NCBI GenBank assembly: GCA_005406025.1
Contig: BGZK01000290.1
Location: forward strand, 1 to 64,000
DNA from: Eumeta japonica
Lineage: Eukaryota; Arthropoda; Insecta; Lepidoptera; Psychidae
DNA length: 64,000 bases
Reading direction: 5' to 3'
Translations under genes and position numbers: made by a program
Notes under the pieces: model-generated
Databases searched by the model: none
What the model saw: only the letters and a program-made list of their open reading frames with translations
What the model was told of the DNA's origin: nothing
Shown: positions 17,160 to 62,530 of the stretch, piece by piece
Layout: each line of letters starts with the position of its first letter
How positions within the stretch are numbered: position 1 is the first letter of the stretch

Positions 17160-18709
17160 GAACGGTGTTGTTAAGGCGAGTCGACTATGGAGTGTATCAG
17201 CTTGTGGAGATACAAAATATCGTAGTGCTTGCGACGGGTTTCGAGAGTTGGTAATTCAAATCTATCACACTTTTATTTATAGTCCGTAAGATATTGGTGA
17301 ACATTAAATCTTTGTAAGAAGAATCTTGAAATCTGGTTTGGGATCTTTCGATAACCTGTATATAGACAGAGTAAAATAGCGAACAAACTACGCAGGCATA
17401 TTCTAAGAAACTTCGAACAAGACAAAGGTAAATCGCAATTAAGCTACCACACTAAGGCGATCACAATCTTCGTGTGAGGTTATTTGACAAAAAAATTTAA
17501 GATCATCAGCGTAGAGAAGAGTAGGACAGGAGAGAATACCAATTAAATCGTTGATAAATACATTAAAAAATAAAGGCCCCAAATACGAACTTTGTGGAAC
17601 TCCAGAAGTTATGCGAGCATGAGATGAGATGTAACTATTAAGCGCAACAAGCTGGCTTCTGTTGTTGAGATACGCACAAATCCACCTAAAAAAGACTGTT
17701 GTGCATTCCATGTGAAAACAGCTTTTGAGATAGAAGTTAGTGGTTGACTCTGTCAAATGCTTTGGAGAAGTCTGTGTATAAATTACATCGACCTGACCTC
17801 CTACATCAAAAACAGTGCACATATAAGACGTGTACTCCAATAGATTTGAGACCTCGGATTTACCTTTAACGAATCCATGTTGTGAGGGTATTATTATTGA
17901 TTAAAAGTGGTTGTTAAGGTATATGTATACTATAGCCTCAAACACTTTAGCAAGACATGACAGAATGCTTATGAGTCTGTAATTGGAACAACAACATTTG
18001 TCACCAGATTTATAAACAGGTATGACAAGTACCACCTTCCAGGCATCAACATAATATGCAATATAATATGCAACGAATTGATACGTTCATTACCAATTGT
18101 TTTAATTAGCAGTGAAGGCAAGCCAGCACCTTCATTGATGTCCACTGCTTTGATTTGCCTCTGTATTTCGCATTCGCTAATTCGGAGAGAAGATAACATA
18201 AAACCGTTTTTGCAAGTGTTGTTAGGAGTATTGTCTAAGTTGATGGTTGGAGTATTAAATACTGACGCAAAGTAATCGGAAAATAAATTAGATATTTCAT
18301 CGGGGTCTAAGGAGGATCTATCACTAAAAATCCTCATCATAGATACGTGACCTTTTTTTGTTGTGGATAAACTTCCAGAATGCTTTGATATTACTGGTAA
18401 GAGTTTCTTCAGTGGCTTCAAGGAAGTTGATAAGCATTCATGTATCAACATCTTGAAACGTTTTCGTAGGAACGAGAAAGCATCATAATCACGAAGGTTA
18501 CCATACATTTTGTATCGTTTATATAATTTATTTTTCTCCTTCAACGACTGTAATAAAGGTTTGCTGAACCAAGTCGGGTATTGTGTAGGACGTCTGGTAG
18601 TAAGGGGTGTATTAGTTTCAACAATATCTTTAACGATCTTGTAGAAGGATTCAAAACATTCATTCACGTCTTCGGATGATAGCACCACAAGCCAGTCAAT
18701 CTTCCGCAT
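17160..18709 (-). pseudogene. LINE reverse transcriptase (broken)
   Basis: The upstream frame (17969-18709, 246 codons) holds the linker and N-terminal reverse-transcriptase region, with KPLLQSLKEKNKLYKRYK and ISECEIQRQIKAVDI. A second frame (17439-17840) contains [35 protein letters not shown] and LLYADDLKF, so the YADD catalytic motif survives. After a deletion of the following segment, decayed sequence resembling the LLEYACVVWSPFY motif appears near 17390, and RFELPTLETRRKHYDILYLH near 17190-17260 marks the C-terminus. Frameshifts, stops and the deletion make it non-functional. Confidence 0.8.
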
Positions 18710-18836
18710 TTCCGATCTAATAACAGCAAAGTTACACTTATTGAATCCAAGCCTACGTACATTCCTATGTTTCAGTGAGTAAAGTGTTAGTTTCGGTGGA
18801 AAGCTTATGAAAAGTGTGGGATGATGCCTATGCGCT

Positions 18837-19487
18837 TTACTGAGCGTGTTGGCCTCGTGAATAGAGATGTCCCAGAGAGTAGACCAGATCCAGGTTTTTA
18901 TTGTTCGCGTTTAGCATGCCACTAAACTGTGAGAGTTTGCAAAGTGACATGAAATCAACTAGAAGTGTAGATCGATGATCATAGGCGATTGTATGGGAAA
19001 AGATACGTTTATTTGAGTTCAAAATCCACGTGTTTAAATCTCCCAAGATTATGATATCGTCAGAATCTTTACAATTCAATATAAAGTTTTGACAGTTTTT
19101 GTAGAAAATCGATAAACGCTCAATATTCAAGTGATGAAGCAAAGGTGAAGTGCGCTACCTTCATTTTTTTGCAGTGTGATATAAATCCAAATGTCCTCAA
19201 TCTCGCTTTCCCATGTAGTTTGACGAAGAAAACATTTTTTTTTTTATCAGAACTCTTCTACCATAATTCTTAGTAACTGACCTAGTATGACGGTCACGAC
19301 GAAAAACATTATATCGCTCATCAATAAATTCACCATCGAATCCACTGCTGTTTAAATTAGTTTCCGTCAGACATATTATATTATAATCATGATTTAGTAC
19401 ATTTACATAAAACTCATTTGATAAAGTCAGTATTCGATTTACGTTTTGATAATATAAAGAATACATTATAAAGAACAATAAAAGCAA
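18837..19487 (-). pseudogene. LINE APE-type endonuclease (broken)
   Basis: Two frames cover the domain. The first reads YYQNVNRILTLSNEFY and DYNIICLTETNLNSSGF, the usual start of APE-like endonucleases, including the catalytic Glu in LTET. The second contains IIILGDLNTWIL (normally GDFN) and NLDLVYS. The intervening sequence is frameshifted and the closing SDH motif is not evident. In life this domain nicks the target DNA for target-primed reverse transcription; here it is inactive. Confidence 0.7.
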
Positions 19488-19561
19488 CCAATTTACATGT
19501 ATAAAGACTATAGTTAATTAATAGGTTAAATTATATTAACTATTTCTACGGTTGTACTGGT

Positions 19562-20060
19562 TTATCTAGATTCTAGATCCTTAAGTACCTTAATTACTAC
19601 TGCCGGCGAAGTATCATCTTTTCTTACATAAATACGTCCGAATCTCACCCAAGTGTATTTGTAACCACGTTCCTTGGAAACATTCCTAGCTGCTGTATGA
19701 ATTTTCTTAGTATGCGGGGCAATATCGGAAACGTAAATATTAATTGCGTTTCCATGGATACCGAGGTGTGCAGAAATCAAAGTTGATGGCTGGTTCTTGT
19801 TATAGCGGCGCACAGCGGAAATGTTGTCTCTGTGGCGCTCTGAGGGTAGGGTCACCAAAATGCTGCGAGGATGGATAGACTGCGGATTAAGCTTTGCGAC
19901 TCGGCATACAGAACAAATGTCAGTGTAAATAATAGGAACCTTTATCTCTTCACATATTTTCTTAAATATTGCCAAGAGGCTTTCAGTACGTTTGTCAGGT
20001 ACGCACTGAACTTCCAGGTTGAATTTATTAAGATTGTTTGGAACTGCTACAAGATTTCAG
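19562..20060 (-). pseudogene. LINE ORF1 C-terminal domain (FP25K-like), truncated
   Basis: The best frame runs 137 codons from MAIFKKICEE to a stop, with upstream sequence in the same frame reading VAVPNNLNKFNLEVQCVPDK. The C-terminal half (HTKKIHTAARNVSKERGYKY, then TWVRFGRIYVRKDD) matches the basic C-terminal domain of insect LINE ORF1 proteins that resembles the baculovirus FP25K C-terminus. In an active element this protein would bind the element's RNA. The N-terminal zinc-knuckle or coiled-coil part is missing because of 5' truncation. Confidence 0.65.
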
Positions 20061-23784: not shown

Positions 23785-24522
23785 ACGACCATGAGGACTT
23801 TGCTCAGTGTAGGATTCCGTAGTCGTTACTACAAAGAAATGCACTTCAGATGAAAAAAATACGTTGTCACACTTTTTTTTTATGTTTCCCGTACAAGGTA
23901 CTTATAAGCACTTTAGCCGTCTATAACTAGAGAAACAAGGTATGTCGACTATTTATCTTAAACTAATGTAAGCTAAAGTGCACCAGCAGAACAGCGCATT
24001 TTCATGTCACTCGATGTCCTTTTGTTGGGAAACGCAGTTTTTGACAATAACTTAAAAAAATATCCGATAATTTTCTATATAATTATAGTTGAAAGTATTT
24101 ATTTAAGCGTTACTTTGTAATTTTTTCATAGTTTATAAAAATATATTTGTATTTTTTTAAAATACATGCGTCTCCCTGACGCAATATATGCTATTTTCGA
24201 AGCGATTATTTCGAAAAATATTTACTCAATCAAAAAAAATTGCTTAGATATCTTAAACTGTTTTTAAAAGTACTGTCGATATACGAACCACACGTTAACG
24301 TTTGCTGAAAAATGTGAGTGCCGCTCCTTGAAATATTTATTTTCGTTATGTAATTACCAAACTAAGTTGCAGCTTATACAAGACACTTATACTCCAAATG
24401 TCATCGATATATATTTTGTACTTTTTGAATAAAATGTCTGTGACATATAGACGGACGAACGGACATGACGAATCTATAAAAGTTTCATTTTTTCTATTTT
24501 AGCTCGGAAACGTAAAAAAATA
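23785..24522 (+). mobile_element. GGTTCCG repeat family A, copy 2
   Basis: Same order as copy 1: GCTCAGTGTAGGATTCCGTA at the start, GTCCTTTTGTTGGGAAACGC inside, a GACGGACGAACGGACATGA block and GCTCGGAAACGTAAAAA at the end. About the same length (738 bp) as copy 1. Confidence 0.65.
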
Positions 24523-32665: not shown

Positions 32666-33359
32666 GACAGTCACAGTTTCAATTTGGAAAAATATTAGTA
32701 TGAAAACAAACTATACCCAAACTATAGTACTTTGCATTGCTGTTATCTTTCTATATGTGAATGTGTTTTACAATTGCCTTAGTTTTACAAATACACGGTT
32801 TCGCACACATGTACTAAGCTTCTCACATTTATTTCAATTATTGTATCAGTGTGATTTTCTTAATTAGTTTTTTAAACACCTTAATAACTTCTGATATAAT
32901 ATTTTGCAATAAAATGTAAAAAGATGCCCATTTTCAGGACCTAAGTTACCGCCCAGGTAAATATCACCAAATTTTCAAATCACCAAAAAGTGATTTAATT
33001 AAGGAAATACAACAAACATAAAGGCATTAGATATACATCCTACTCTTTTCAACTTTTAGATACAATAACACACTCATCAATCGTTTCGGGTAAATCTTAC
33101 TTCTGGTTAACTGTACCTCCGAAGAATTATATAGGTATGTCAGACGACTTTTACGTTCGTCATAATTGTAATAGTACAATCATCATAATATGACGACAAT
33201 CCTCAATCTCATACTCTTCATTACACTTAATCACAGCGATCAATCAGTTGTTCCCGACAGTTAAAACACACAACGATTCTGTTTAGTTCCTCGAAGATCT
33301 GACTTCAAATCCGATTTCATTAATGGGCAAAAAGTTTTAATTCGGATAAATATCAACAG

Positions 33360-33715
33360 TCCCGAACGCTATTCCTCCGTCAAACTCCGAACAGTCCGCG
33401 TAAGGCACAGTTTAAGACCATTAGGGAGATAAACGCCGCCGCGCCGCCCGTCGTCCAAATCTCTTTAACGGATTAACTTATTTAGCGGGCCGAAGCGGAA
33501 TTTGCGTTTGTTATAAACACAAGATTAAAATCTTTATTCGAAGTCGGAGTGGCTAAGTCGTCATAAAAATTCTACTCAAAGTCTGAAAGTTGGGGGACGA
33601 TTTGCCTTAATTGAATTCAGTCTACGATTTGAGCGGAATTTGTGATAAGTGAGCTTCACTCGCCTCTAGCTTCGACTTCGGCCGTTTGAATGAATGCAGT
33701 GACATTTTTCAGGTT
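33360..33715. other. GC-rich island with 22-bp motif copy 1
   Basis: Holds motif copy 1, GCCGCCGCGCCGCCCG, and ACGGATTAACTTATTTAGCG. The right part (33.55-33.71 kb) is milder in GC. Confidence 0.4.
33411..33432 (+). promoter_or_regulatory. 22-bp island motif, copy 1
   Basis: The sequence begins TTTAAGACCATTAG and ends GGAGATAA. It is one of three near-identical 22-mers in this window, here inside a GC-rich stretch (33.36-33.49 kb) and followed by a GCCGCC-rich run. Function is unknown; the CCATTAG core resembles homeodomain-type sites, which is inference. Confidence 0.5.
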
Positions 33716-33719
33716 CTCC

Positions 33720-35530
33720 AATATCCGCGATACATGGTAATGTGTAAAAACTAGTTTTCTTTTTTTTTGTATTTAATATTTTATTTCTTATAATATAACT
33801 ATAACGGATATTAATAAAAATTTACATACTGCCAAAGATCTTACGGCTTATCAAGGTAAACAGTCGTTTGAGGAGTAGAATAAAAGTTCTCCTATTTGTT
33901 AAACTTCTCCTATTTATTGTACATCTTCTTGAGCATTTCCCTCATCAATGACGTCATTAACGAAGGCTTAGCTCTTGCTCAAGCCCGAAATCTCTAGTGG
34001 CTTCCTATTCCGAAGGCAATCTTTCAAAATAAATCCTATGCCACCCAGCAGCATTTGATAATTCTTCGAGCTACTGGTGAAATCGCTCAATGCTGTTCTG
34101 AAAGTGAAATGGTATTTCTGCTGCTCACTAACAACCAGTAAAAACACATAAGTATGTCTCAGCATTTCATCATCTTTTTTGCAAGCGAAAGCGAAAAATA
34201 GAATAGATTGACCCTCGACCCTATTACTAATAGATACAAGAATGAATTACAATTATAATTTTAAAATGTCATTAGGAATAAAAGACAAAAACAGTGCATC
34301 TGTTTGAGGTCTTGATACATAGCAAACATTATCGTAACCTTGAAAATGAAAATGGTGTCAAGATGAACCGGTCTCGCTATGGCTGCAGGAACTGGAACTG
34401 GAACTATGCGATTGTATTATAAAATTCTCGTGGGAATACTGAACTTGCCATTTTATCAAATTAGGCCGTATATAAATTTTAATTTCATGAATTACCCTTC
34501 TCGTCCTGTACTATATTTTTTGAACGAAGAAGTAACTTAAAGTTAGCACTCAGATGCACCCATCTATTTCTGTGTATATAAAAATTGTACGTTAATGGAG
34601 TGCGCTACGTAAATGACTTCTTTGTACAAAAATGACGAGACCGAGCATTTAAAAGATATATGTATTAAATTTTTTAACGGTTAAATAACGCTCTCGCAAT
34701 TATTTAGCTTCCGAAGCGTCTTCGGAGTGTATTTTCATACGTCTGTATGTTAAATAAATAATCTTATTATCCAAAAGTGAGAAAAACCAGCGCATCCAAA
34801 GTTGTAGTGTTTGTGTCGCTAATTTTATGCATTTTTTTAGACTAGAACTTTATCTTTTAAATATTCTGTATACTGCTGTATAAAGCTGCAGTAGGCGGCG
34901 GATGCATCAATGCGCAAATTACATTGTTACGTGCTCACCTTATTGAGTGTTCTAACAGCTAATTAACACCAGGTGAAAAGAAACACATAAAAAACCAAAA
35001 GATGTATATTCAGAAATACAAAGTCACAATAAACGGCTATGGGACAGCTCGAGTACTTATTGTAGATCGTACTTGACTTGTGAACGCATTGATCGCAGAA
35101 AAAAAACTCATCCGTCATCGTTCAAACTTCGATAAAAATCATGCCAACTAGCCATGCAACATGCTCTACAAATAAAAATAACTCAACTAATTATCCAAAA
35201 CAGAGAAGTCGTAAACATGTCGCGTCTGATTTATTGCATTATCAAAATTTCCACCTCAAAAAAATTAATGCATTGGAAATAAAATTCGTAGGCAGTGGTG
35301 ACGAAGGAGAAAGCGGGGATGCGATAAGAAGTTATTTACGCTTAGAGAATTCTATTCTCAAACATTTTTTCTTATTGCAATATTTTTTAGTTTTATTTTT
35401 AGCTTGTGAATGCATTTCGCAACAATATTCAAAGGAAAAAAAAAACACAAGAGCATTAAAACAAAACTACCTATATAACATTAAACACTAACAAATTTCA
35501 AATATGGCAAAACGATTTCAATACCTACAA
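33720..35530. other. AT-rich stretch with unrecognised frames
   Basis: Two frames (33968-34165 minus, 65 codons; 35141-35491 plus, 116 codons) show no recognisable domain. The longer is rich in Lys/Asn/Leu as expected of AT-rich DNA. Neither has supporting splice or promoter signals. Confidence 0.4.
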
Positions 35531-36640
35531 AATTTTTAGGAATCCGTTTCCAAAATAGAAAAACGAAACCCTTATATCTTGGTCGTGTATATTCGTTCGT
35601 CCGCCTGTACGTCACAGGCATTTTACTCAAAATATATATTTATGAAATTTGTGGTATAGGTGTCTTGTATAAGCCGCTACTTAGTTTGGTAGCTGAATAA
35701 CAAAAATAAATATTTCTAGGGAAGCACTGCATACATGTAATAGCTGAAAAAAATCCTTTCAGCAAATATCAACGTGTGGCGTATATTTCGAAAGTTTTTT
35801 TAAAAGACTTTAAGGATTTTAAGCAATTTCTTTGATTATGTGAATATTTTCGGAAATAATCGTTCCGAAAATAGGTTTCTTTCCAAAAATAGAAAATTGT
35901 GTCCTCGACCCCCTTTACTTTTTAAACAGTCCATCAATAAATATGAAAAACATTATAAACATAACGCGTAATAAACGCATCCAGTGAATTTGTTTGGATA
36001 TACCGTTTGTGGGTCGTTGCCGAAAAACTGCGTTTCTCAACAAAAGACGTAAGTGCCATGAAGATACACTCTTTTACTGGTGCATTTTTTCACATCATAT
36101 ATTTATATTTTAATACTGTAGTAAGTGTTTAAATATGAAATTTAATACAAAAATACGTATTTATGTAAATTAGTTAAATTAGTAGTGCATTACATCAAAC
36201 TTCAAAAAATAGTCATTTAACGATAATAAAATATATTTAATATAAACTTTGTATAATAAAAGGACAAAAGGACTGGTCTTTCTCGTAGTACTCTCTTACA
36301 TATTTGAAAACGATGTATGTAACGAAATATGTAATAGTATGTTTCTTGAAACCTCAAGTGATTTCATTATAGTCATTTAATTGTTGGTTCTGTAAAACAG
36401 GTAGTGAAAGTACGCTTATGAACAATGTAAAATTATGTGAATATAAAACTATATCATCCATCATTAATATCCGTATTATGCGGGCCCGTTTTTAGACGTT
36501 ATTAGCCGTTAAATCATTAACTCAATTAATAGATACATAGTATCAAACAAACCCCCATCGATGTCTGCATAGTGTAGCAAGTCACTGCGGAACCATACAC
36601 TGCCCGTGGCTCGACTTGCACTTGGGCGGTTTTTTTTCAT
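35531..36640 (-). mobile_element. GGTTCCG repeat family A, copy 3, longer
   Basis: On the minus strand it starts AAACCGCCCAAGTGCAAGTC with GAGCCACGGGCAGTGTATG, passes through GTCTTTTGTTGAGAAACGCA and ends GGAAACGGATTCC. At 1.1 kb it is about 370 bp longer than the other two copies; the extra sequence lies around 36120-36570. Confidence 0.6.
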
Positions 36641-36644
36641 TTTA

Positions 36645-38160
36645 TTATTGTTAGTACTTACATGCCCACAAGACGCAATGATATTTTAAGCAGTCGAATA
36701 ATTATTTTACGTGGAATTATAGGTATAAGTTAAAATATAACGCACTTTTTAATAGACTATTCAAATATAATACACAATTTTGAAAATATTCTTGTCGTAA
36801 TTATAACATTAAATAATAAATATATATGAAAAAAAATAAAAATTAATAAATATAAGAACCGAATAGATTCATTATTTTTTCAAATGAATCTCACCGTGAT
36901 TTTATTATTTCGACTGAATAATCAGATTATTAAATGTTTAATAATTATTTATCATTATATAATAATCATTTGATTATTTCATAATTGCGTTTTCTATTTA
37001 TACTCTGACAAAACGTATAACCTAAATAACAAAATTTAGATAAACGAATCGGATAATATCGTGTAATCCTTCTATTTAAGACTGTGAATACCTTTCAGAA
37101 TCTTAAATACACATCTACCTGATTTTAACGAAATCCTATTTCATTTAAACGGAACTGTGTAAGCCCAAGATGCTCAGAAACACTCCTCACGAGGAGCAAC
37201 TTTTTACGAAAGAGGAGAGGATTGTTTTGTTTCCCTCAGTAAAAATGAAATAAAAACACTTTCCTTGCAGGAAAAGCGGAACAGGGCTTAAAGAGACAAT
37301 CTTAGAACCTCCATGTGTTCTGCAGTAGATGCAGGATAAACCCAACAATGAATCGACGGTTAAGCAGACTTGTTCTGTTTTTTTTTCAATTAAAATAATG
37401 GTTTAGAATGTAATAAGTAATAAGAGAATGAATTTTATTTATTTATAAATTATACTTATTAGAAAAAATAAATAATTTAACTTATAAGAAAATTTAACAA
37501 AAACTTCCTATAACTAATAGATGCAGAAAATCTTCAATAGATGGACAGACAATACCAATAGATGAGGACAATTTTTTTGTGTTTTTTTGACTTATTATTT
37601 ATTAGTTACGTTTTTAGCATTGCTAATGAAATATGGACGTAATCATATAGCACGTATTTCATTTCATTTATTTATTAATTTTAGCAATGACAAATACAGT
37701 TTACCGATCGTCTGTCACATGTTTACAAGTGATGGTGCTTTTGAAGAGAAACGTTTTGAAGTCAAAAGAAAATAATAATAAATAAAATATATTTTTTGCA
37801 AATATAAAACATACAAAATAAAACTAAAATTGAAATTAAAATAAAAGTTTAAATAAAATTTAAAAAGATACAATATGAATAGATACTTTACATATGAAGT
37901 AAAGACAAAAATATTATTTTATATAGTCAAAATATACATAGTCATTAAAAAAATATTACTGTACATTTTTTATTCTTAAATTTAATATAAGCAGTTATTA
38001 AAATAATGGTTGTTCTTCTGTTGGCGTATTTACTCCAGCAGTAGACATGGCAAGTGTGCAATAAAAGCAAATTTTCATTGGAAATGCATTATTTGCAACT
38101 AGTTTAGCCTAGGTCTCTGCTCGCATGGATATTAAATGAATTCATCAATCTTTTACATAG
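36645..38160. other. Very AT-rich stretch, no gene seen
   Basis: Runs of A/T dominate, with a small CTCCTCACGAGGAG hairpin near 37177. Nothing else recognised. Confidence 0.5.
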
Positions 38161-38164
38161 AGCC

Positions 38165-38275
38165 CTCTCTCTTTCAATTACGATCCGGATGCCGATCCTG
38201 ATTTTGATTTTAGTTGCAGTCTCTGTCCCAGTCTGCCCTTAAATCCAATCCCAAACCCGTTCTCGAATTCTCATC
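38165..38275. repeat. Degenerate 6/12-bp minisatellite
   Basis: GATCCGGATGCCGATCCTGA and related TC/GAT-rich words repeat, similar in word use to 32520-32665. Both are preceded by TCTTTTACAT. Confidence 0.5.
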
Positions 38276-38811
38276 CATGTAGAATACCATATATTTTTTT
38301 AATTTTCCGTATCTGCTTATGGCATTCTAAATATCACATTTAGCAAAAAATCTATTTTCAGTTGTTTTCAAATTGAATCTAATGCCATGTTGTTCTGAAT
38401 ATAACATTAATGGCAAAAAAACTCTATGAGTACAAGGCTAAACCGATGGTGGTCTACCATCTACCATTAGTTTTGAGGAGTTGGACGGAAGACTAAGGAA
38501 TATAATTGCTGCTTATAATATAAAATTAAAGAGCGTGATTATGTGTCCTCTCAGTTCAGAAAGATAACAACACCTTTGCTGTTGCGGCATCAGAATTGAG
38601 CAGTTAGATAGCTAAATTGAACAAAAATGTCTGTATTTAGAACTCACAGTATTAAACTAAAATCGGTATAGTGACAGACCTCACAGCTATAGGAAACACT
38701 TTAGACTCTAAACTGAGGAGTTTAATTCTGAAATTCACATCATTTTGTACTTATTTAATGTATTATAAATCAAATGCATGTTCAAAGAAAAATTTGTTTT
38801 TTTATAAATTT

Positions 38812-39080
38812 TTCGAAGGGCGACCGAGCGTGCGAGCCCCAGAAAGAAGGTGGTCATCGCCGCTCATGGACACTCGCAATTCCAGTGGGATTACCAGTGC
38901 GTTACTGGTATGTTGCGTTCCTACCCACGATATCTTTTGGAGAGTGCAGTAGTCCACCAAAATTTTCACTCGCCGGACGAAACGCAACAGAGGAAGCTAT
39001 TACTTCACGTCTGCCCTGTGTGGTAATCTCACCATTAGAGCCGGCCCATTTTCGTGCTGCCTGAACCTACCTGAAAATAC
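38812..39080 (+). mobile_element. Short interspersed element with CGCCGGACGAAAC, near full length
   Basis: The head GGGCGACCGAGCGTGCGAGC is followed by a GGTCATCGCCGCTCATGGAC block, GTGCGTTAC, TCGCCGGACGAAACGCAACA, and a tail GCCGGCCCATTTTCGTGCTG. The same order appears in whole or part at four other places in the window. I recall this element as widespread in Lepidoptera. It is non-coding. Confidence 0.65.
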
Positions 39081-39589
39081 CACGGTTATTTATCTACCAG
39101 AAAATTAATGAGCTATTTTGAAATCGCTAAGAGACATTTCAATTTTATTTATGTGTACAAATTTATAGATTTCACTTCGATTAACTTTTTGTAAGAATTT
39201 ATATTAACTCTTATTGAATTTTTAGAGAGCTTTCTCAATTATTGTCATTACGTGCTATTAATTTCTGCTCTTTGTGCTTTCATGTATGCTTTGATTTTGG
39301 GCTAAAGTTAAAAAGAAGGCTCCATGTTATTACACTATTACATTATTATTACACGCGTCCTTGCTCTTAGTACAACCGAAAATATTTTAGATTTTAATGA
39401 GTATCTTAGAAATTCTTTTTCTTCAATCAGTTTCATCTAATTTAATTAATATTTCTTTTGATGTTCGGTTTCTATAAGTAATAGGGATAGTCCTCTAGGA
39501 TTCAAAGTTTCGCCGCAAGAAAACCCAGATTTGAACGAAAAACTGAAAAAGCAGTTTATAAAAACACATCAACCGACTGGACATCGAAT

Positions 39590-40005
39590 AAACATACATG
39601 AACATATACAGCGAGCGTTCTATCCACGAAACCGTGGAATTTGTTCGCGACTTAAACACGGACAAATTTCATTGTTTTCATTTTCGCCGTCCATTCGAAG
39701 CTTTGTTTTGCTCTTGCGCATTCAAAACGGAGGCACAGAAGCCGAGATATACGTGCATTCGATTCGTCCCCGAGTCATTAGTGGTAATCTGGTGTGGGTT
39801 GAGGCACCGGTCGGCCGCAACACGGGGATATTAAGCGCGCGCCCCCCGTGGAATTCCAGGCAACGTCCTTGATTTCCGTAAACAGATCCCGAAAGGGCGG
39901 AGCCCGGCTTTAAAGCCATTAGCGAGATAAATTACCGACTCCGCTGCGATAGGCTCCTTCCCGCGGGTAATCCTCTTAGCACTATGCACACTTTTAAATT
40001 TACTC
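39590..40005. other. GC-rich island with 22-bp motif copy 2
   Basis: Contains motif copy 2, AAGCGCGCGCCCCCCGTGG and GCGGGTAATCCTCTTAGCAC. Overlapping ORFs on both strands do not resemble proteins. Confidence 0.4.
39909..39930 (+). promoter_or_regulatory. 22-bp island motif, copy 2
   Basis: The sequence begins TTTAAAGCCATTAG and ends CGAGATAA. It sits in the GC-rich island at 39.6-40.0 kb. The preceding bases (AAGGGCGGA...CGGC) also resemble those before copy 3, so the similarity extends to roughly 35-40 bp. Confidence 0.5.
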
Positions 40006-40009
40006 GGCT

Positions 40010-42200
40010 ATAGGAGGAGCACTCGTTGGAAATATATTTAGGTTGACTTAAATTCAAAGAAAATTCAAACGCTTCGGATTTTTTCCGTTAGCGAATGTCA
40101 CTTAACCTAAAGAGCTATCAAGTGCCAGCTGAAATTAATAGATGGTCCCGTACTAAACACACTTCAAAGTTCTCTTTCCTTGCCTTTTATATCCGACAGA
40201 CAACCAAGACTTTTATTATTACATCCTCTCAAAAATATACAGAAGATGAGATATTGAGGCAATATTTTTTGAAACCTTTGTTTCTTCTAAAAAATCTAGA
40301 TATAGATAACAAGTTTCTTTAATAGAATTCGCAAATATTTTCGATAGTTTTAAGTACAATAATATCTGAAATATCGAAGCACTTTACGCTCGTTTGAGCC
40401 ATTTTCGCCTTGGAGTTTTTAAAATTACTAATAATATATTTTTTGTTACTTATGAACAGCCCCCTAATTGATATGGCACATGACGTGTAAAACTCAATAA
40501 CATAAATTCGTATTTATTTATTCTCAAAATAAATAGGATGCAATTTAAAAGTCTTATATATTAAAAAACAGAATTAATAAAGCATATTATATATTATACA
40601 TTATGTCACTTTAGAAATTTTCGAAGTAAGGCTATTATGTTTTGAGCTCAGGGACGAATCTCATAAATCGACTAATTTGATCAATAAGCTCATTACCATT
40701 TGATAGCAATAATGAACACTAAGGAATCACCGTGGATCGAAAATGAATTAACATGTGACTATTTCGAACGAATAAGACGCAGCTATACTATGGCACCAAT
40801 CTGAAGACATGCTTCACATAAATTCATTCCGCTGCCAATGATGCATCCTAATGATTAATATCCTGTTTTTGCACCAAACACGGACGGAAGCAACAATCCC
40901 GAGGTCCGAAAAAGTAACTCGGTGGAGAAATCTTCGCGAACTATCGGGCAAACTTGTAAGAGAGCCAAATCGCGGAGGAATGTTCGAAATGCCGACCACA
41001 AATGAAATTGGTGAAAACTCGGAGAAAAAAAAACATAGGAATTCCAAATACCTCGACCTAACTCCGACCAGCACAACTACAGTTACATAAATAGCGGCGA
41101 TGGTGCCTTAAAAAAACATCATTGGTCAAGCGTGAAACGAACTGGCGCTCAGAAATTTCCGCTATTAACAAATGCTATTGCGCAACTTCTTCCCCTGTCC
41201 TTTTAATTTTCGGAATATGGAAGTATAAAAATATGGGAAACGTAATTGAATACAATTATGGTAGAAACTGAAAGGGAGACGTTTCACCCTGAACTAGGTG
41301 TTTGTATACCATATCAAAAAATAGCGAAATATGTACGATTCTAGAAAGATGCTAGAAATTTCTTTAATTTGCTAATAATTTATGAAACCGTTCCTATTTA
41401 TGAAATCGTTCATATTTATGAGATCACAGGTAATAAATGTCAATCATGCCCTACCGTGATAATCCTCCTCGACGGGTCCACACAAATTTTTTTCACAAAT
41501 GCTTTGCTTAGATATTGATTCCTTTATCCGCTAAAAGTGCAATTGGTGAACTTAAAATACATATTGTATACCTATAACAAAAAACATCAGATTTAGTAAA
41601 ACTTGTTAATTTTCTTAACTCTATATTTTTTATATAATTGCTGTACAATAATCTATCTCAGGTTGCTAAAATTCGTAAAAGTCTAATTTATGGTATGTTT
41701 TAAGTTAAGTTATCCTGATTTTCCCACAATTTTAGATGTATCAATTTCTGAAATAAATGTGAATGTACTTATTTTTTTCTCTAAAGTGCCAGTATACCTT
41801 TATTGACGTACGATACAGACTTATATTTAAAAAAATGTTTTAGCCTTTAGAAGTAGCTGTTTTAACTATTTTGTCACATACATTTACATTTACAACACTA
41901 ATATACCTTAGTAACTCTATTTTAAATTAGAAATGGATAATTTCCTTATTTGACTATTTATTTGAGACAAAATACATTACTTTTAACCCAACAAAATAAA
42001 TTTCAGGATGTCGGCTCAGCGGAACTATTTAATGTGAAAGCACACATTATGCATGCCATAATTAAAAATATTGTTTTGACTGAATAACAATTTTTTGTAA
42101 GGATAGCTTTTATTGCATGCATTCAATAAAATTGTATTGAAATAACTTATTCACATTTATGGAATATGTCCAAAGGGAGGCAATAATATATTTTAGAACG
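40010..42200. other. AT-rich stretch, one repeat-like patch
   Basis: Overlapping frames on both strands at 40814-41090 end in CTAACTCCGACCAGCACAAC, similar to CCACTCCGACCGGCACAGC at 30512, so the patch is probably a dispersed repeat. The 18-bp minisatellite at 41378 lies here too. Confidence 0.4.
41378..41425. repeat. 18-bp minisatellite, about 2.6 units
   Basis: ATTTATGAAACCGTTCCT, ATTTATGAAATCGTTCAT and the start of a third unit lie head to tail. Confidence 0.75.
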
Positions 42201-42201
42201 C

Positions 42202-42205
<4 letters not shown>

Positions 42206-42250
<45 letters not shown>
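42206..42250. repeat. (TA)n microsatellite
   Basis: Uninterrupted TA repeat, about 22 units, the longest in the window. Confidence 0.95.
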
Positions 42251-42254
<4 letters not shown>

Positions 42255-43019
42255 TTGGTTACATTAATAAGATAATAAACCTGTTTGTCATATGCATAAT
42301 ATTGGTGTTTAATATTGTCCAGAACCAAATGTTAAAATTGTATTATCACACTTATCTATCATCGTCACGAAACAAAATGAGAGTTCTTTGTCAGCATTTT
42401 TCGTCAATGATGGTGAGCCATGTGGTTTTGACTGGAGTCGTATTACTTGTTGAATAATTACAACACATATAATTTTCTGATCCATAAGTTGTTCTATGGG
42501 GTTAGCCAGTTAGTTAAATATTGGTGACACTAACATAGGTGAAACCCTTATCATTTAGTATTATAGGTATTGTTATTGTATTGATTACTTTTTTCCTTCT
42601 AAACTGTCTTCAAATAATCTTCTACGATAATTCGTTCTATTAAGCACTCTTTTCTAACTGCTTATTATTATCGTTTCTTGTTTCCATTCGAAATTAAATG
42701 AAATTACAGACTTTTTAAGTATCTATGTTGTTATGATAATCTCGACAAAAAAAAGTAACATATAATCTTGTTAACTATAGAGAAGTTATCATTTCATATA
42801 ATACTTTACGAAACTTAATTAATTTATATCTACATATTTGCTATTTTTTTCTTAATTGTTATCTATAAAAAGTTTACGACATTACTTACGAGTCCAAATT
42901 GAGTGATTTCTCTTATCGAATAGCTTTGAATCAAAGTAATGAGATTTTGTAGTACTTAAGAAAACTATGTGAGCATATTTGAGAATGCAGTTTCAGTATT
43001 ATAAGGAAATACATTTGTC

Positions 43020-43245
43020 ATCCTTGTCGTGATCGCCTAAGTTCTGCATTTTATGCGAAGAATGGCCGGTTGTAACGCCAAGTGCAGCACGTCTGTAAAG
43101 TTTGAACGTACGAAGTTTCATCCTAGACTCGCCGGCATCGGCGATTGTCGATAATCTTGTCCATGGCTTTATTACGTTAAATAGGCTAACACGATAGCAT
43201 TTCTGCTTTCAGCGCCTTGCGCATCGTTATCGATATCGTTAATGT
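43020..43245. other. GC-moderate island
   Basis: CGCCGGCATCGGCGATTGTC and ATCGTTATCGATATCGTTAA stand out from AT-rich flanks; the latter is a run of near-palindromic ATCG words. No ORF. Confidence 0.3.
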
Positions 43246-43761
43246 CACGACTATATCATTATTTAATCTCATTTAGAAATCAATCGTTTTTTTTTGCAAA
43301 CTATTCATTTCGATTTACTATATTTAAATATAACTAAATTTTTATATATACTGTAAAATACGAAATTGTAATTTGAAATCAAGTTCTTTTGTGAGATTAA
43401 AAATAAATCGTCAACAAAAACGTTTTTGTTGAAACAGCACACTTTTTTTTTTCAGTGATATCCACGATTTCACGAGAGTGAGCCTAATTCTTCATAAAAA
43501 GAATTTTTGAAAATTTACGTTTCTGCAATATTTAAACACTTCTAGCTAGTAAATATAAATTATGTAATCAGTTGTAACACTTGCGGTACCTACACTCAAT
43601 ATAAAAGAGTAATAAAAGCCAATTGCGTATTGCTAATTTTTTTTTTTATGCACAATTACAATAACTGACATAAAATGTGTTTTGTACTCCCAAGACAAAT
43701 TACAAAGAGCTTTTCTCTTAAATTAATTATACCGAATTCTGCGATGGAGATAAATTATATA

Positions 43762-45010
43762 CGAGGGCCAATTTGAAATGATTGACATTCTCTCAAGCGC
43801 CGGTTTTCCCATGGTTATGATTACGCATGCGTATTAATCCGCTTCAGTACAAAAGCGCGAGCGGTAATCACTTCCCACGTTTTTAAACGTAGGTGTTGTA
43901 AAATTATATTTCAATGAAACAAGTATTGTATTTGAAATGTTAGCACTGGCGTGCTTTGATATACTATGATTTTGGGGTTGGTTTATTTGAAGAACGACGT
44001 ATGCAACGGTTAGAGTCAGCGTTAAATAATGCAGCGCTATCTCGAGCCACTGTGTTTCGATAGTTTAAAGAATTTCGTAATTGCCGTAATTCACTTGAAT
44101 AGAGAGCAAGATGAAGAACATACGGGAAGACCAGTTTCAACAGCCACTCCAGATAATGTTGCCCGTGTTCGTAAAATGATAAAAGATCACAATCAATCCA
44201 TCTACCACATGGTTCAGAATACTCTTGGGATTTTAACCGTAACGTGTATAAGATCTTGCATGATGAATTAAAAATGGAAAAGACTGTTTCTTGTCAGGTT
44301 CCACATCACCTTACATAATACCGATATCTGAGTGTGTGAGGATCAGCCGACAGACATTAAAGTTAATGAATAAAGTTGATCACCGTACAATACTTAGAAT
44401 TGTCACAGGTGATGAAACGCATATTCCCTTTTATGACTTGCCTACTCGTCAGAAAAATAAAATATGGATTCATAACGATGATACAGCACCAACTATCGTA
44501 AAAATAGTACGTGCAATGAAGTAAGCCCTGTATGCCGTGTTTTTCAGAAGTATACGTTTTGTTAAAGCCATTTATTTAAAAAGGTAGAAAACTTTTACGG
44601 TGGCGTGGTGCACACAACACTGTTTGCCAGAAGTTCTCCAGACTCTTAGAAATAGAAGCTTAATGTTGCACCACGACAACGCGTCCTCTAACACCGCAGC
44701 GTTCACTGTCAACTTTTTGAAGGAAAATAACATTATTGGCTTAGAGCATCCGCCTCACTCACCGCATGTCGCAATGTACGACTTTTGATTTTTTTTAATA
44801 AAAAAAAAATGGTCGGTCTCCGTTTTACGTCAGAAGAGTACGACTCCACTATTACTGAATACTTTGACTCTATTTCTGTAAACGATTGAGCGATGCTTTC
44901 AGTTTTGTGGAAGTGTATTGGTGCTGAAGGAGACTACTTTGAACATATCAATGTGGTGTGCCTTGCCTGTATAGCTTTTCTGTATCTCAATAATTTCGGA
45001 GTGATCCTAG
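43762..45010 (+). mobile_element. Degenerate mariner element, second family
   Basis: The left end CGAGGGCCAATTTGAAATGA follows TA. A decayed inverted counterpart ends at about 45010 (13 of 20 positions agree). The 1.25 kb length fits mariner. The interior encodes a broken transposase (44000-44965). The right end lies only about 200 bp from the candidate terminal exon on the other strand. Confidence 0.75.
44000..44965 (+). pseudogene. Mariner transposase, D34D type (broken)
   Basis: Pieces in shifting frames read RMQRLESALNNAALSRATVF, then EEHTGRPVSTATPDN with VARVRKMIKD, IVTGDETHIPFYDLPTRQK, CLPEVLQTLRNRSLMLHHDN, LEHPPHSPHVAMYDF, and ITEYFDSISVND ending GDYFEHIN. All three catalytic Asp residues can be placed (TGDE, HHDN, YDF), with 34 residues between the second and third. 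At least three frameshifts and in-frame stops inactivate it. A copy of the same family lies on the minus strand at the right edge of the window. Confidence 0.8.
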
Positions 45011-45218
45011 TTTCTATGTAAATAACCGATACAATAAATCATAAACTATTCTCAATTGACGTAGAAACTCCTTCATCACTATTAACTATTCAATAATTAT
45101 AAAAAGAAACTAAGCGTCGTTAAAAAACTGATATAAACACAAGTAAAATTATTGATTCATTATTATACAAAATATACTAGGCATTAGGATTAATGAGAGT
45201 TCTATTTAGTCTATGCTT

Positions 45219-45303
45219 TTATTCATCCATATCATTACCATAGTCAAAAAGTCCTCTAAAATCTGCCTTGGGAGTTTTATTCCACTTTTGTATCTTACGT
45301 AAC
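45219..45303 (-). CDS. Candidate terminal exon of the same unidentified gene
   Basis: On the minus strand a pyrimidine-rich stretch ending TTTTTTCAAG precedes a frame reading LRKIQKWNKTPK, then ADFRGLFDYGNDMDE and a TAA stop. AATAAA overlaps the stop codon (plus-strand 45217-45222), so a polyadenylation signal sits at once after the coding end. It lies 1.35 kb downstream of the candidate exon at 46653-46872. A phase-0 join to that exon would need the AG ten bases further in (first codon ATA, residues IQKW); with the CAAG acceptor the phases do not match and another exon would be needed between them. A second frame is also open here (FQGYVRYKSG...), so the frame choice rests on the acidic C-terminus and the stop/poly(A) arrangement. 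No family recognised. Confidence 0.4.
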
Positions 45304-46189
45304 CTTGAAAAAAGCAACAAACAAAGAACATGGACCGCAGCGGGATACAAACGTGTAAACAAAGTGCACAGCACACGACTGACAGCGCTTAATTAAGACT
45401 AACGAATAAAACACAATCTCATTAATAAAATATTCACTTGTTTATGACTTTTGCTTTATTTAATTAGGAATAGAGAGGTTTTTATAAATTCGTTTATGTA
45501 TTTGATGTATTTTATAGCTTTGTGTAACGTTCAGTTAGGAAATGTTTAATGACTTTTTAATTACGATAACTTGGTGAAGTTTCAAAACATTTTTGACTTT
45601 ATAATAATTACTATTATAATAAATAAGACTTTTTTAATAATGGAGTGTTTCTTCATTGTGAGCAGATACTGGCCATTTTTTGGCATTATCCTTTAAAATA
45701 TGCGCATCAAATTAATAAAATTTCATATAGTATGGATGCAATCATTCATCTATTTGCAACAGGTTGTTTGTGATATATGTTTGTATTTTAAAATACTTTT
45801 AGAACAACTGAACAACAACAAGAAAAGTAAAAAAAAAATTTGTTGGCTTCGACGTGCGTTTAAAGTTTACTCTTTAAGTTCGATTGTTTTTGTATATACA
45901 AGACAAAGAGATAAATAAAAATATGTTTTATACTAGTGAAAGAATGTTTATACTTTAATTAATATTTATTTAAAATGAAACGATAAAACATTATTGTTTG
46001 TGAAAATCGGACCCCTAAATAAAAATTTCTGCTATTATAGCTATCTCTTATCAAATAAAGTTGGTATCCAACTACAATATTAGCTACCATTATATGTAAT
46101 AATAATTTTTATTGTTGTTTATAATAATTTTATAAATTATTGAAAATACTTTTTTAAAGACTAATGAAAAAAAGGTCTGGCAATTGTGA

Positions 46190-46270
46190 GATTCTAAACT
46201 CACGCCTCTGAAGAAACTGGTGCCTTTAACAAGTACTTTTAACCACTCGGCCACCTTACCATTAAGCACA
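46190..46270 (-). repeat. tRNA-like (Ser/Leu type) pseudogene or SINE head
   Basis: The minus strand reads GGTAAGGTGGCCGAGTGGTT, a near-perfect A box of a tRNA-Ser/Leu gene, but the B box is decayed (GTTTAGAATC for GGTTCGAATC) and the anticodon arm does not fold clearly. It is a non-functional tRNA derivative. Confidence 0.5.
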
Positions 46271-46339
46271 GTATTGAAAATCATAGTAGAGGTTAAAGAC
46301 GTATAAAAAAACGTAACGTTTTTAGTCAACGCTTGTAAT

Positions 46340-46560
46340 TTTCACTCCTCATAAAATTTCCATACCGGGCGCTTCATACAAAAAAGGAGTTAACTCCAAC
46401 AATTTCGCGAAATGAGTAGTTTCTGAGAAATACATTATAGGAAACACCTTTAAAAACGACTCCGGCGCACCCCTAATGACGCTTATGGCCCACCAAGACG
46501 TGGTGTAACGTAAGCGTGCGAAGCGTGCTGACGCCGAGTGCCGCACCATTGTCTCGATAA
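46340..46560 (-). repeat. Probable dispersed repeat in the intron
   Basis: The minus strand reads CACTCGGCGTCAGCACGCTT, GTCTTGGTGGGCCATAAGCG and GGAGTTAACTCCTTTTTT. It looks like a lepidopteran dispersed repeat, recalled but unverified. It contains the palindrome GGAGTTAACTCC. It lies between the two candidate exons. Confidence 0.35.
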
Positions 46561-46652
46561 TCTGATCATAGTCCTGTCACGTCGACCGTCATTGGATTAC
46601 TGTGCCACATTTGTTGAGATAAACATTTCGGATATTAGTATAAATCACTCAC

Positions 46653-46872
46653 CTTTGATTTATTGACGACGTAATCTTTATGGTAGTATCGCTGGACGAT
46701 GTAGGCGTCAAATATCTTGGCTTCAGCAAGATGTCTAACGCCTACATCGTTATTACTTAATAAGACGGTTAAAAAGGGAACACAGTTGAGATGAAAATCA
46801 TTTCTCATGCTCGCGTTGAATCTTTCCATAGTGACAAAAGAGTGCTGCACAATCGGTCTAACCAAATCTAAG
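46653..46872 (-). CDS. Candidate internal coding exon of an unidentified host gene
   Basis: Read on the minus strand, this 220-bp block is open for 73 codons after one base that completes a split codon. It is preceded by a pyrimidine-rich tract ending TTTCAG and followed directly by GTGAGT after AAG, so both splice sites match consensus closely. The peptide starts LDLVRPIVQHSF, contains VPFLTVLLSN and RHLAEAKIFDAYIVQRYY, and ends VVNKSK. Codons are varied and the composition is protein-like, unlike the repeat-derived frames around it. I do not recognise the family; the alternating hydrophobic helices could be ARM/HEAT-like, but that is a guess. Unspliced, the frame would run only five more codons (VSDLY) to a stop. 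The exon lies between two tRNA-like repeat remnants and contains a 24-bp hairpin. The 5' splice junction is phase 2 and the 3' junction phase 0. Confidence 0.6.
46696..46750 (-). other. Near-perfect 24-bp hairpin inside the candidate exon
   Basis: Arms 46696-46719 and 46727-46750 are inverted copies with a 7-base loop. The outer 13 bp are perfect (ACGATGTAGGCGT). Three differences follow; in minus-strand RNA two are G-U wobbles and one is a mismatch. The hairpin coincides with the codons for NDVGVRHLAEAKIFDAYIV. It could be a pre-miRNA-like fold or a coding coincidence. Confidence 0.75.
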
Positions 46873-46884
46873 CTGAAACAATTA

Positions 46885-46965
46885 AAGGAGAAACTGTGCT
46901 GACTGAGTGGTAAATGCGTTTCCATCAAATGAGAAAGCACCGAATTCGAACCCTGACCTAATTTG
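46885..46965 (+). repeat. tRNA-like remnant
   Basis: GCTGACTGAGTGGTAAATGCG resembles an A box, and AATTCGAACCC 35-45 bases later resembles a B box. A full cloverleaf is not evident. It lies just upstream (on the minus strand) of the acceptor of the candidate exon at 46653-46872. Confidence 0.35.
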
Positions 46966-46984
46966 AATAAATTTACGAGATGTT

Positions 46985-47115
46985 AAATTAAGCTATCCAC
47001 CCCGTAGCATAGATGACGCGTCAAGTCATCGGTCCCGGCGTCTTAATCGCATTGATGAGAACGATTTTTAGCACCCTACAACTCGTACTAGACTGTGACA
47101 ACAGTGAAGCATCTC
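46985..47115 (-). other. Unexplained GC-balanced block upstream of the candidate exon
   Basis: On the minus strand TTACATTTCAG precedes a 35-codon open stretch (GDASLLSQSS, then RVLKIVLINAIKTPGPMT and stop) and GATGACTTGACGCGTCATC, a near-palindrome. It could be an exon with a good acceptor, but no donor is clear; a dispersed repeat is the alternative. Confidence 0.25.
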
Positions 47116-47864
47116 CATCTGAAATGTAAAGATTGTATTAAAAAATAACATCTTTGCAATCAACCAATAAACAGCTGACCCAATAAGACCAACTGGCTGA
47201 CTATGCAAATCCAACTTTACAAATAGGTGATTTGCTTTATTTTCTAGGCGCTGATTACGAATTGTGTTTGTTTAATTATTTATTGTTAATGAAGTAAAAT
47301 GTAACGCCTGTATAGGTAATAACTTGAAGTGCAAGAAAGGTCGGAATTTTGAGGTTCTTTACTCGGTAAACTTTAGGATTTCTCGTGAATTGACTAGCAG
47401 TTGATTATATTATGTTTTTTTAAGTACTCATACTGTGCGGTGAGACTCAAGTGATCTTATAATATAGGCACTTGTACACAATCTAGGAACGAGTCTCTCA
47501 AAATTCTATGATTATCATTTTATTGAAAAATATGCCCTTAGTAAAATGCTGGCTGTTAATAGAGAGAAAATAATTAAGTTACAAATATTATTATAACTTT
47601 TCTATATGCACACGTATTCGAGTATAACTTTAGGACAGTATAACTTTAATACATTATACATGACAGAATTGAAAAACTTCTTTTTTTGTAGACGGCTAAA
47701 AATTACAATTGTTGAGAAAAAAAAACATTTAATATTACGAGTAAACCAGATTGCCCTAAGGCCCGGCTGCTTCAGCGTTTTCCAACTTTTGAAATATGAT
47801 CTTTTTGTCGTAAAACGGAAAAGATACAAGAATTTCCCTTCGTTTTACACCGAAAATAAATTCT

Positions 47865-48045
47865 TTATTCGGCGGCGCCCGAGGTGCGGCCGCGGGCGGA
47901 CGGGGGTTAAGGGTGGGTGTGGGAAGGGGGAGAGGTGAGGGCGGCTATAAGTTATCCCGCTAATGGTTTTAAAGCTGACATCTGCCCTTCCCGGCCCTCT
48001 TTAAGAAAATCACGAACATGAGCACTGGGCTTAAACTCTGTTCCG
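47865..48045. other. GC-rich island with 22-bp motif copy 3
   Basis: A G-run tract (47892-47942) lies next to motif copy 3 (minus strand) and a CCTTCCCGGCCCTCTTTAAG block. Overlapping ORFs run into it from the left but look spurious. Confidence 0.4.
47952..47973 (-). promoter_or_regulatory. 22-bp island motif, copy 3 (inverted)
   Basis: On the minus strand the sequence begins TTTAAAACCATTAG and ends CGGGATAA. It is preceded by AAGGGCAGATGTCAGC, similar to the flank of copy 2. It lies in the GC-rich island at 47.86-48.05 kb, next to a G-rich tract. Confidence 0.5.
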
Positions 48046-48049
48046 GGCT

Positions 48050-49425
48050 AAATGATAACAGGCTAGTACTTCTCGGTGGTACTTATTTAAAGGAGAAGGC
48101 TGTTTTTTTTTACTTTAAGGCAAACGTCTTCTGTCGCTAGGGTTCCGTATATAATAAAACTTTACTTATATAATAAACTAGAAAAAATCACGGTTTTATG
48201 AGGTTTCGCAAGAGTTTTTTTCTATGCACATCCAGTGGATGCAAAAATGACTGCAGGTTGCACTTGAATATAAATAAGTTTCTATAGTGTTGGGGACATA
48301 TTTTCTGGATGTGGACGGTTTCTGTGTCATGCATTCCAAGAACTCGATATTCCCAAAACTATTCTAAACATGATCACTGGCCGATAACGTATTTGAATGC
48401 ATGTATATGTAAGCGATTTATTTTAATCCGAGTTGTATAATGTATTACACGAATATCAAATAGTTTGGTAATATAATTATAATTTCATACAATAATTATA
48501 TACTTGGTAATATTATCAGAAAGCATTTATTTACTATTACTGCCATCTGTATTTATTATTAATATTAATAATACAATTATACTATTATAATAATATTCTA
48601 GTTGAAAATATAAAAAAAAATCACGCATTAAACAACACATAACAATAACTATCTGTATAATTATACCTAATCCAAAAATCCTCTAGAAATTTTGTAACAT
48701 TCTAAAAGTAAACCCATTCATATTAAGTCTATAATTTTTAAATAAATGAAAAAATAATAGAATGCTGTTTGGCACTGATGAATGTGACATTAATAGTATA
48801 GTTAAAGGACAATACAGAGAAACAGAACCATTCAACCTGGACCTACAAGTAGTAACAAGATTTAATATGAAATCAAAAAAAAAAAACATATAAATACTCA
48901 AATACTCGTATCTGTTAAAAGTGCTTTGTAAAGGATTTTTATAAACCTCACCAAAATTAAAAATAAACAGTAACAAAATATAAACAAAGACTCAACAAAA
49001 TACTCAACACCCAATTATAAGCTAAAAATAAAACAATACTTAAAAAACCTATAAAAAGCTATAATATAAAATAAAATTTTAAAAAATACATACGCTATTC
49101 CGATGCTGACTTAATCGTTCGGAATTATCAAATATTTAGATACAGAGTCGGAAGCTCTTAATATAACTACACGAACCACCTGTAATAAACACAATATTCA
49201 TACAGCAGTATAAACATACACACTAAACGGAAAAACTCGGAGGCCGCAGATTCATTAACGTTAATAACTTACACAACAAACAAATAGACAACCGACGATT
49301 ATTACTTTTAGTTAAATCTCAAGACAGCCACGTATATAGAACAGTAGCTAATTTATAACAACCAGGTACACCCCTTTTAGTTAATAAAACTGAATTCGAT
49401 CCCAAACAGAAAATCCACAAAATGG
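48050..49425. other. AT-rich stretch, no gene seen
   Basis: Only composition-driven frames. AGGGTTCCGTATATAATA near 48140 may be a fragment of a GGTTCCG repeat. Confidence 0.45.
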
Positions 49426-62117: not shown

Positions 62118-62530
62118 TTGCGACAACTATACATACAAACATATTTTTACATTTGTTGTATTATAAATATCATTTAACCACCTACAGACGATTCCATGTC
62201 GAATGGTCAAATTTCCAATTACAATCCGTCGAGCCGTCAGCGTATGACAAACATCCATACAAACCTATTTTTTTTATATTTCTATTATAAATAGCCTATA
62301 ACAATCTATAAACAATTCCACGTTGAATGGTCAAAGTCCACATTACAATTATTCCAGGCTTCAGGGTATGACAAACATCAACTCAAACCTAAATTAACAT
62401 TTTTCCTATTATAAATGGCCTATAACTATCTATAAACGATTTTACGTCGAATGGTCAAAGTCCACATTACAATTATTTCAGGCTTCAAGGTGTGACAAAC
62501 ATCCAAATAAACGTACTTTACTTTTTTTTT
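62118..62530 (+). repeat. 124-bp tandem repeat, about 3.3 units
   Basis: The landmark TATTATAAAT falls at 62159, 62283 and 62407, an exact 124-bp period. Each unit carries a GTCGAATGGTCAAA-like block and ends with TGACAAACATC. The last two units are most alike; a partial unit precedes 62159. Confidence 0.85.

What the first reader, a model, noticed from the sequence alone, without database searches (positions are those of the whole stretch)
33411..47973. A 22-bp sequence conserved in three GC-rich islands over 14.5 kb
Copies at 33411-33432 (+), 39909-39930 (+) and 47952-47973 (-) begin TTTAARRCCATTAG and end SGRGATAA; only positions 6, 7, 15 and 17 vary. Copies 2 and 3 also share an AAGGGC-rich upstream flank. 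All three lie in GC-rich islands rather than in recognised transposons, so shared regulatory logic (a composite binding site used by several enhancers) is attractive. An alternative is an unrecognised short repeat, or a small structured RNA.
Basis: partly seen in the sequence, partly recalled or inferred. Interest (0 to 1): 0.8.

Follow-up and report, generated by a model that had tools for sequence, protein, structure and literature searches.

The report
Three locus-specific copies of a 22-bp motif
A 22-base DNA word occurs exactly three times in this insect genome, all within 14.5 kb of apparently non-coding DNA, and two copies sit in a longer shared 70-base block, so it is probably a repeated regulatory-protein docking site of one gene and not a mobile repeat.

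Summary
The three 22-mers are where stated. In the held 702-Mb host assembly the pattern TTTAARRCCATTAGNGRGATAA has three exact matches, and they are these three. One 1-mismatch and twelve 2-mismatch matches lie elsewhere; up to 3 mismatches the count (272) is near the reversed-pattern control (242). A transposon-like triple from the same window gives 6,366 against 25, so this is not a dispersed repeat. Copy 1 shares only the 22-mer. Coding, structured RNA and Rfam families are not supported. Best reading: a locally duplicated non-coding element carrying a composite or long DNA-binding site, used by three cis-regulatory elements of one unidentified gene. Not shown: conservation in other species, open chromatin, bound protein, target gene. 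The 22-mer is not significantly better kept than the rest of the block (P = 0.07). A hint that the 15-bp core recurs in GC islands did not hold against the reversed control (13 of 97 versus 3 of 40, P = 0.25).

The parts
33411..33432 (+). Copy 1 of the 22-mer; flanks not alike to the other copies
   Evidence: flank comparison
39909..39930 (+). Copy 2 of the 22-mer
47952..47973 (-). Copy 3 of the 22-mer
39865..39934 (+). 70-bp block around copy 2, ungapped, 53/70 identical to the block of copy 3
   Evidence: its bases 39870-39898 have one other match in the genome within 3 mismatches, in the copy-3 block
47948..48017 (-). 70-bp block around copy 3, inverted relative to copy 2
   Evidence: its bases 47984-48012 matched
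33331..33560 (.). Island 1, GC 0.45, CpG observed/expected 1.91 (limits chosen by eye)
39601..40000 (.). Island 2, GC 0.50, CpG observed/expected 1.44 (limits chosen by eye)
47851..48050 (.). Island 3, GC 0.56, CpG observed/expected 1.02, below the window's 1.24 (limits chosen by eye)

Best explanation
The three sites belong to a small, locus-specific set of non-coding cis-regulatory elements in a long stretch of this contig with no recognised host gene. Shown: three 22-mers with no other exact copy in the assembly, two of them inside a 70-bp duplicated block. Inferred: an ancestral element of at least 70 bp was duplicated locally, with copy 3 inverted relative to copy 2, and DNA-level selection kept it, the 22-mer being what all three elements share. 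The 22-mer would be a contact surface about two helical turns long: either a composite of adjacent sites (TTTAA; CCATTAG, homeodomain-like when read as CTAATGG; RGATAA, GATA-like; labels recalled) or one site of a multi-finger C2H2 protein. Copy 1 is either an older duplicate that lost its flank or a site that arose independently. The three islands would act as separate enhancers or silencers of the same gene and read the same input.
For: Only three exact copies in 702 Mb, all within 14.5 kb, against 6,366 for a repeat-derived control word from the same window. Ungapped 70-bp block, 53/70; upstream identity 33/60, reached by 0 of 3,438 GC-matched comparisons; no third copy of the upstream 29 bp within 3 mismatches. 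The three copies lie in GC-rich stretches, whereas the 27 near-match loci seen lie at GC 0.20-0.39. No coding signal: substitutions 6/6/5 over codon positions, 3 silent and 10 non-silent codon changes in the one frame that ends in a shared stop. No RNA structure. No recognised host exon in the 214 kb held.
Against: Copy 1 has no flank similarity. Between copies 2 and 3 the 22-mer (20/22) is not significantly better kept than the rest of the block (33/48; P = 0.07). No orthologue comparison, chromatin data or target gene. The 15-bp core is not shown to be a general regulatory motif. The block-sized similarity could be an old neutral duplication.
Confidence: 0.5

Rival explanations
1. Neutral relic: a fragment of about 70 bp was copied within the locus by a local duplication, or belonged to a very low-copy or extinct mobile element. 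What remains is decaying similarity without function, and copy 1 is a fragment or a chance match.
For: Copies 2 and 3 are alike over a sharply bounded block; the 22-mer is not significantly better kept than the rest; copy 1 lacks the block.
Against: The same 22-mer recurs a third time with no other exact copy in 702 Mb; no indel in 70 bp despite 24% divergence.
Confidence: 0.25
2. Architectural or tethering site: the three copies bind a protein that pairs the elements with one another or with a promoter, so that they shape the locus and do not by themselves activate transcription.
For: Long motif, confined to one locus, in both orientations, 6.5 and 8.0 kb apart.
Against: No contact data. The CTCF core as I recall it ends GGCGC; these sites have RGATAA there. 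Known insulator proteins use sites across the genome, these have three exact sites.
Confidence: 0.12
3. Transcribed function: a small structured RNA or a short peptide ending at the shared TAA.
For: The frame ending in the shared stop is open for 31 codons upstream in copies 2 and 3 and for 55 in copy 1.
Against: 3 silent against 10 non-silent codon changes; substitutions even over codon positions; folding z between -1.12 and +0.80; no consensus structure; no Rfam match at gathering score.
Confidence: 0.04
4. Chance similarity.
For: Pairs of 22-mers within 3 mismatches occur about 9 times per shuffled window (mean 8.6), and real windows hold many triples from repeats.
Against: No triple in 100 shuffles; 53/70 block identity; all exact copies of the genome lie together.
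Confidence: 0.04

Closest known systems
Duplicated conserved non-coding elements (dCNEs) of developmental loci (e.g. CONDOR, PMC2020477; seen only as search listing and start of abstract)
   Same: Paralogous non-coding blocks of tens of bases, far apart, in gene-poor DNA.
   Different: As I recall, dCNEs are defined by conservation between species and usually lie near paralogous genes; here the copies lie within one locus and cross-species conservation is untested.
Shadow or multiple enhancers of one gene (e.g. PMC10234526; search listing and start of abstract only)
   Same: Several elements of one locus that would read the same input.
   Different: Activity is untested; such elements usually share short degenerate sites (recalled), here one 22-bp word.
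CTCF and other insulator sites (recalled)
   Same: Long motif; the register CCA.TAG.G.G recalls the CTCF core.
   Different: Lacks the GGCGC end; three exact sites in the genome instead of many.

Membership tests
Dispersed repeat or transposon fragment | Many copies over the genome | tested here: not met
   3 exact copies, 272 against 242 reversed at up to 3 mismatches; repeat control 6,366 against 25
Dispersed repeat or transposon fragment | Copies alike over the element, beyond the word | tested here: inconclusive
   Copies 2 and 3 alike over 70 bp, copy 1 not
Duplicated conserved non-coding element | Paralogous similarity without coding signal | tested here: met
   53/70 for copies 2 and 3, even over codon positions, 3 silent and 10 non-silent codon changes
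Duplicated conserved non-coding element | Conserved between species | not testable with these tools
   No other insect genome is searchable here; the own genome has no relatives held
Duplicated conserved non-coding element | Lies near a developmental regulator gene | tested here: inconclusive
   None of 96 homeodomain matches is on the contig (150 of 164 candidates scored); none of 101 matches to six other domain types (82 of 1,171 candidates scored); the window starts at a contig end and 302 kb of the contig were not read
Shadow enhancers | Overlapping activity on one gene | not testable with these tools
   No expression or chromatin data
Structured RNA or microRNA family | Stable or covarying fold, or an Rfam match | tested here: not met
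   Folding z -1.12 to +0.80 for 3 sites on 2 strands; no consensus pairs; no match at gathering score
CTCF site | Core ending in GGCGC (recalled) | tested here: not met
   All three end RGATAA, by reading; no matrix was run
Genome-wide GC-island motif | 15-bp core enriched in GC-rich stretches over control | tested here: inconclusive
   Core at up to 1 mismatch 125 against 83; flank GC of at least 0.5 in 13 of 97 against 3 of 40 control, P = 0.25; against a composition model 13 versus 4.0, P about 2e-4

The most novel reading that the evidence does not exclude
A locus-specific 'address' word: a site of about 22 bp, present exactly three times in a 0.7-Gb genome, that lets one dedicated (probably multi-finger) DNA-binding protein coordinate or physically tether several elements of a single gene. 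This would be private cis-regulatory code, unlike the short degenerate sites reused across a genome.
Probability: 0.1. Interest if true: 0.75.

Novelty: new member of a known kind. Interest (0 to 1): 0.42.

Why it matters
Enhancers of one gene usually share short degenerate sites that are hard to tell from background. A long word confined to one locus, with a duplicated 70-bp context, gives a clean handle: it can be deleted copy by copy, used as bait for its protein, and followed through related species to ask how the elements of one gene come to share their input, by duplication or by convergence.

Tried and rejected
Dispersed repeat: rejected by genome counts with a positive control. Small structured RNA or microRNA: not supported. 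Coding peptide: the frame ending in the shared stop is open for 55, 31 and 31 codons, but codon changes between copies 2 and 3 are 3 silent and 10 non-silent. CTCF: considered from memory, rejected on the missing GGCGC. Homeodomain gene on the contig: 96 matches in the genome, none on C288. Chimeric query for forkhead, HMG, nuclear-receptor, GATA, Sp-type C2H2 and bHLH domains: 101 matches, none on C288, only 82 of 1,171 candidates scored. Pfam on 30 ORF references, 29 distinct: above cut-off only RVT_1 and Baculo_FP_2nd; three matches below cut-off at E 0.07-0.09. Core as a general GC-island motif: looked promising in my first 20 contexts (5 in islands; the 16 with one mismatch were chosen by me), but was not significant with all 97 listed rows outside the window and the reversed control. 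Search with the 85-nt copy-2 element finds only itself, and blastn of the islands in held sequence finds only themselves and two 20-23-nt matches; both miss the known similarity of copies 2 and 3, so diverged paralogues elsewhere are not excluded. Word search in papers: none for the 15-mers; two papers hold a 12-mer of the core, with titles on other subjects, not opened. Topic searches in papers were read as listings only; no paper was opened. Exact pattern in viral and prokaryote collections: 0, which says little about insects. Lenient gapped alignment of 1.4-kb regions is uninformative.

Full report
Observation. The three 22-mers are real and exact to the stated coordinates and consensus; pairwise they agree at 19, 19 and 20 of 22 positions. 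In 100 locally dinucleotide-preserving shuffles of the window no triple of 22-mers within 3 mismatches (G+C at least 7) arose, while pairs arose 8.6 times on average. That null is too kind: four real 64-kb stretches of the same contig (the first is the window, the last two overlap) hold 11, 11, 9 and 17 such triple groups, most of which look like old repeats, tandem arrays or simple repeats. The question therefore had to be settled genome-wide.

Genome-wide test. The window is positions 1-64,000 of contig C288 (516 kb) of a 702-Mb assembly. The pattern has three exact matches in the assembly, these three. One match has 1 mismatch, 12 have 2, and the total up to 3 is 272 against 242 for the reversed pattern. 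The pattern was built from these three, so their being exact is by construction; the information lies in the absence of any other exact copy and in background-level near-matches. A positive control makes this concrete: another triple of the same window, from a transposon-like repeat, has 6,366 matches against 25 reversed; it was the only one of the other triples that I tested. The 14-bp prefix alone has 48 matches against 58 reversed. The 27 near-matches whose surroundings came (27 of 269 outside the window) lie at GC 0.20-0.39 over +/-100 bp; the three copies lie at 0.44, 0.54 and 0.53.

Anatomy. Copies 2 and 3 share more than the 22-mer: an ungapped block from -44 to +25, 70 bp, 53 identical (39865-39934 + and 47948-48017 -). 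In register, the upstream 60 bp agree at 33 positions, which 0 of 3,438 GC-matched comparisons reached; the local-alignment score was reached by 0.44% of comparisons, a set that can include overlaps with the blocks themselves. The upstream 29 bp have two matches in the genome within 3 mismatches, these two, reversed control 0. Inside the block the 22-mer keeps 20/22 and the rest 33/48, a difference that is not significant (Fisher P = 0.07). Copy 1 shares the 22-mer, but its flanks are at background (best fraction 0.08). A sequence profile of the three finds no fourth member in the 214 kb of C288 that I held; it matches its own three by construction.

What it is not. Substitutions between copies 2 and 3 fall 6/6/5 on the three codon positions. 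The frame that ends in the shared TAA is open for 31, 31 and 55 codons upstream of copies 2, 3 and 1, but its codon changes between copies 2 and 3 are 3 silent and 10 non-silent, the reverse of coding constraint. Local folding is ordinary on both strands (z from -1.12 to +0.80), there is no consensus structure, and Rfam gives nothing at gathering score in the window or in 150 kb of neighbouring sequence; four weak matches at a relaxed threshold lie elsewhere in the window.

Setting. In the 214 kb held I found no exon of a recognisable host gene: stop-to-stop ORFs, motif expressions and Pfam on 29 distinct ORFs show only retroelement pieces above cut-off. This is a partial screen and short exons could be missed. 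C288 carries none of the 96 homeodomain matches of the genome and none of 101 matches to a chimera of six other DNA-binding domains, of whose candidates only 82 of 1,171 were scored. The stretch looks like a gene desert or a very long intron with scattered GC-rich islands. The target gene is unknown; the window starts at a contig end and 302 kb of the contig were not read.

Is the core a general motif? The 15-bp core CCATTAGSGRGATAA at up to 1 mismatch has 125 matches against 83 reversed, a modest excess that includes the three window copies and a repeat family (L065, L068, L069). I fetched the 97 listed matches outside the window (97 of 122). Of these, 13 have flank GC of at least 0.5. A composition model expects 4.0 (P about 2e-4), but the reversed-pattern control gives 3 of 40 (Fisher P = 0.25; rank test P = 0.55; 40 of 83 control sites were fetched). 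I treat this as inconclusive. If the core does recur, the locus-specific parts are the TTTAA half and the 70-bp block.

Mechanism. The most economical account is a locally duplicated non-coding regulatory element whose 22-mer is the part that all three copies share. The word contains TTTAA, CCATTAG (reverse CTAATGG, homeodomain-like and close to the Islet consensus as I recall it) and RGATAA (GATA-like); these labels are recalled and come from no call. Its length fits either a composite site with fixed spacing or one multi-finger zinc-finger protein. Shown: no other exact copy, duplication of the block, no coding or RNA signal. Inferred: selection, regulatory function, common target. The neutral-relic rival (0.25) can be removed only by comparison with related species.

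Verdict. In kind this is known (duplicated or repeated cis-regulatory elements). What is unusual is that so long a word is confined to one locus.

Noticed in passing
window 46696-46750: Inverted repeat (22-nt arms, 11 nt between) that folds far better than shuffles on both strands (z -5.2 and -6.3), inside an ORF (46635-46982 -) without a Pfam match and with only a weak similarity to ribosomal protein eS26 (best E 0.64). Possibly a decayed pseudogene with an inverted partial duplication, or a microRNA-like hairpin; copy number untested.
   Followed up: partly
window about 9757-10393, 23801-24459, 35594-36080: Three diverged copies of one repeat; one 22-mer of it has 6,366 matches in the genome within 3 mismatches.
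   Followed up: partly
window 17439-20056 (-): Decayed non-LTR-type retroelement: reverse transcriptase piece (RVT_1) and a Baculo_FP_2nd domain, frames broken into several ORFs.
   Followed up: no
window 44090-44728 and 63376-64000: Long inverted pair of similar sequence, 75-88% alike in four pieces, about 19 kb apart; probably two copies of one mobile element.
   Followed up: no
window 62159-62528: Tandem array of three 124-bp units.
   Followed up: no
L060 (C1527:103868-104168): An exact 15-bp core in a GC-rich context, preceded by its own inverted half (TAATGGTCCATTA), which suggests a paired site.
   Followed up: no
G000:C368:243872-335161: Ten homeodomain matches within about 91 kb, looking like an expanded Hox-linked cluster; a one-mismatch copy of the 15-bp core lies nearby at 348735 in GC-rich sequence (L111, flank GC 0.60).
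   Followed up: no
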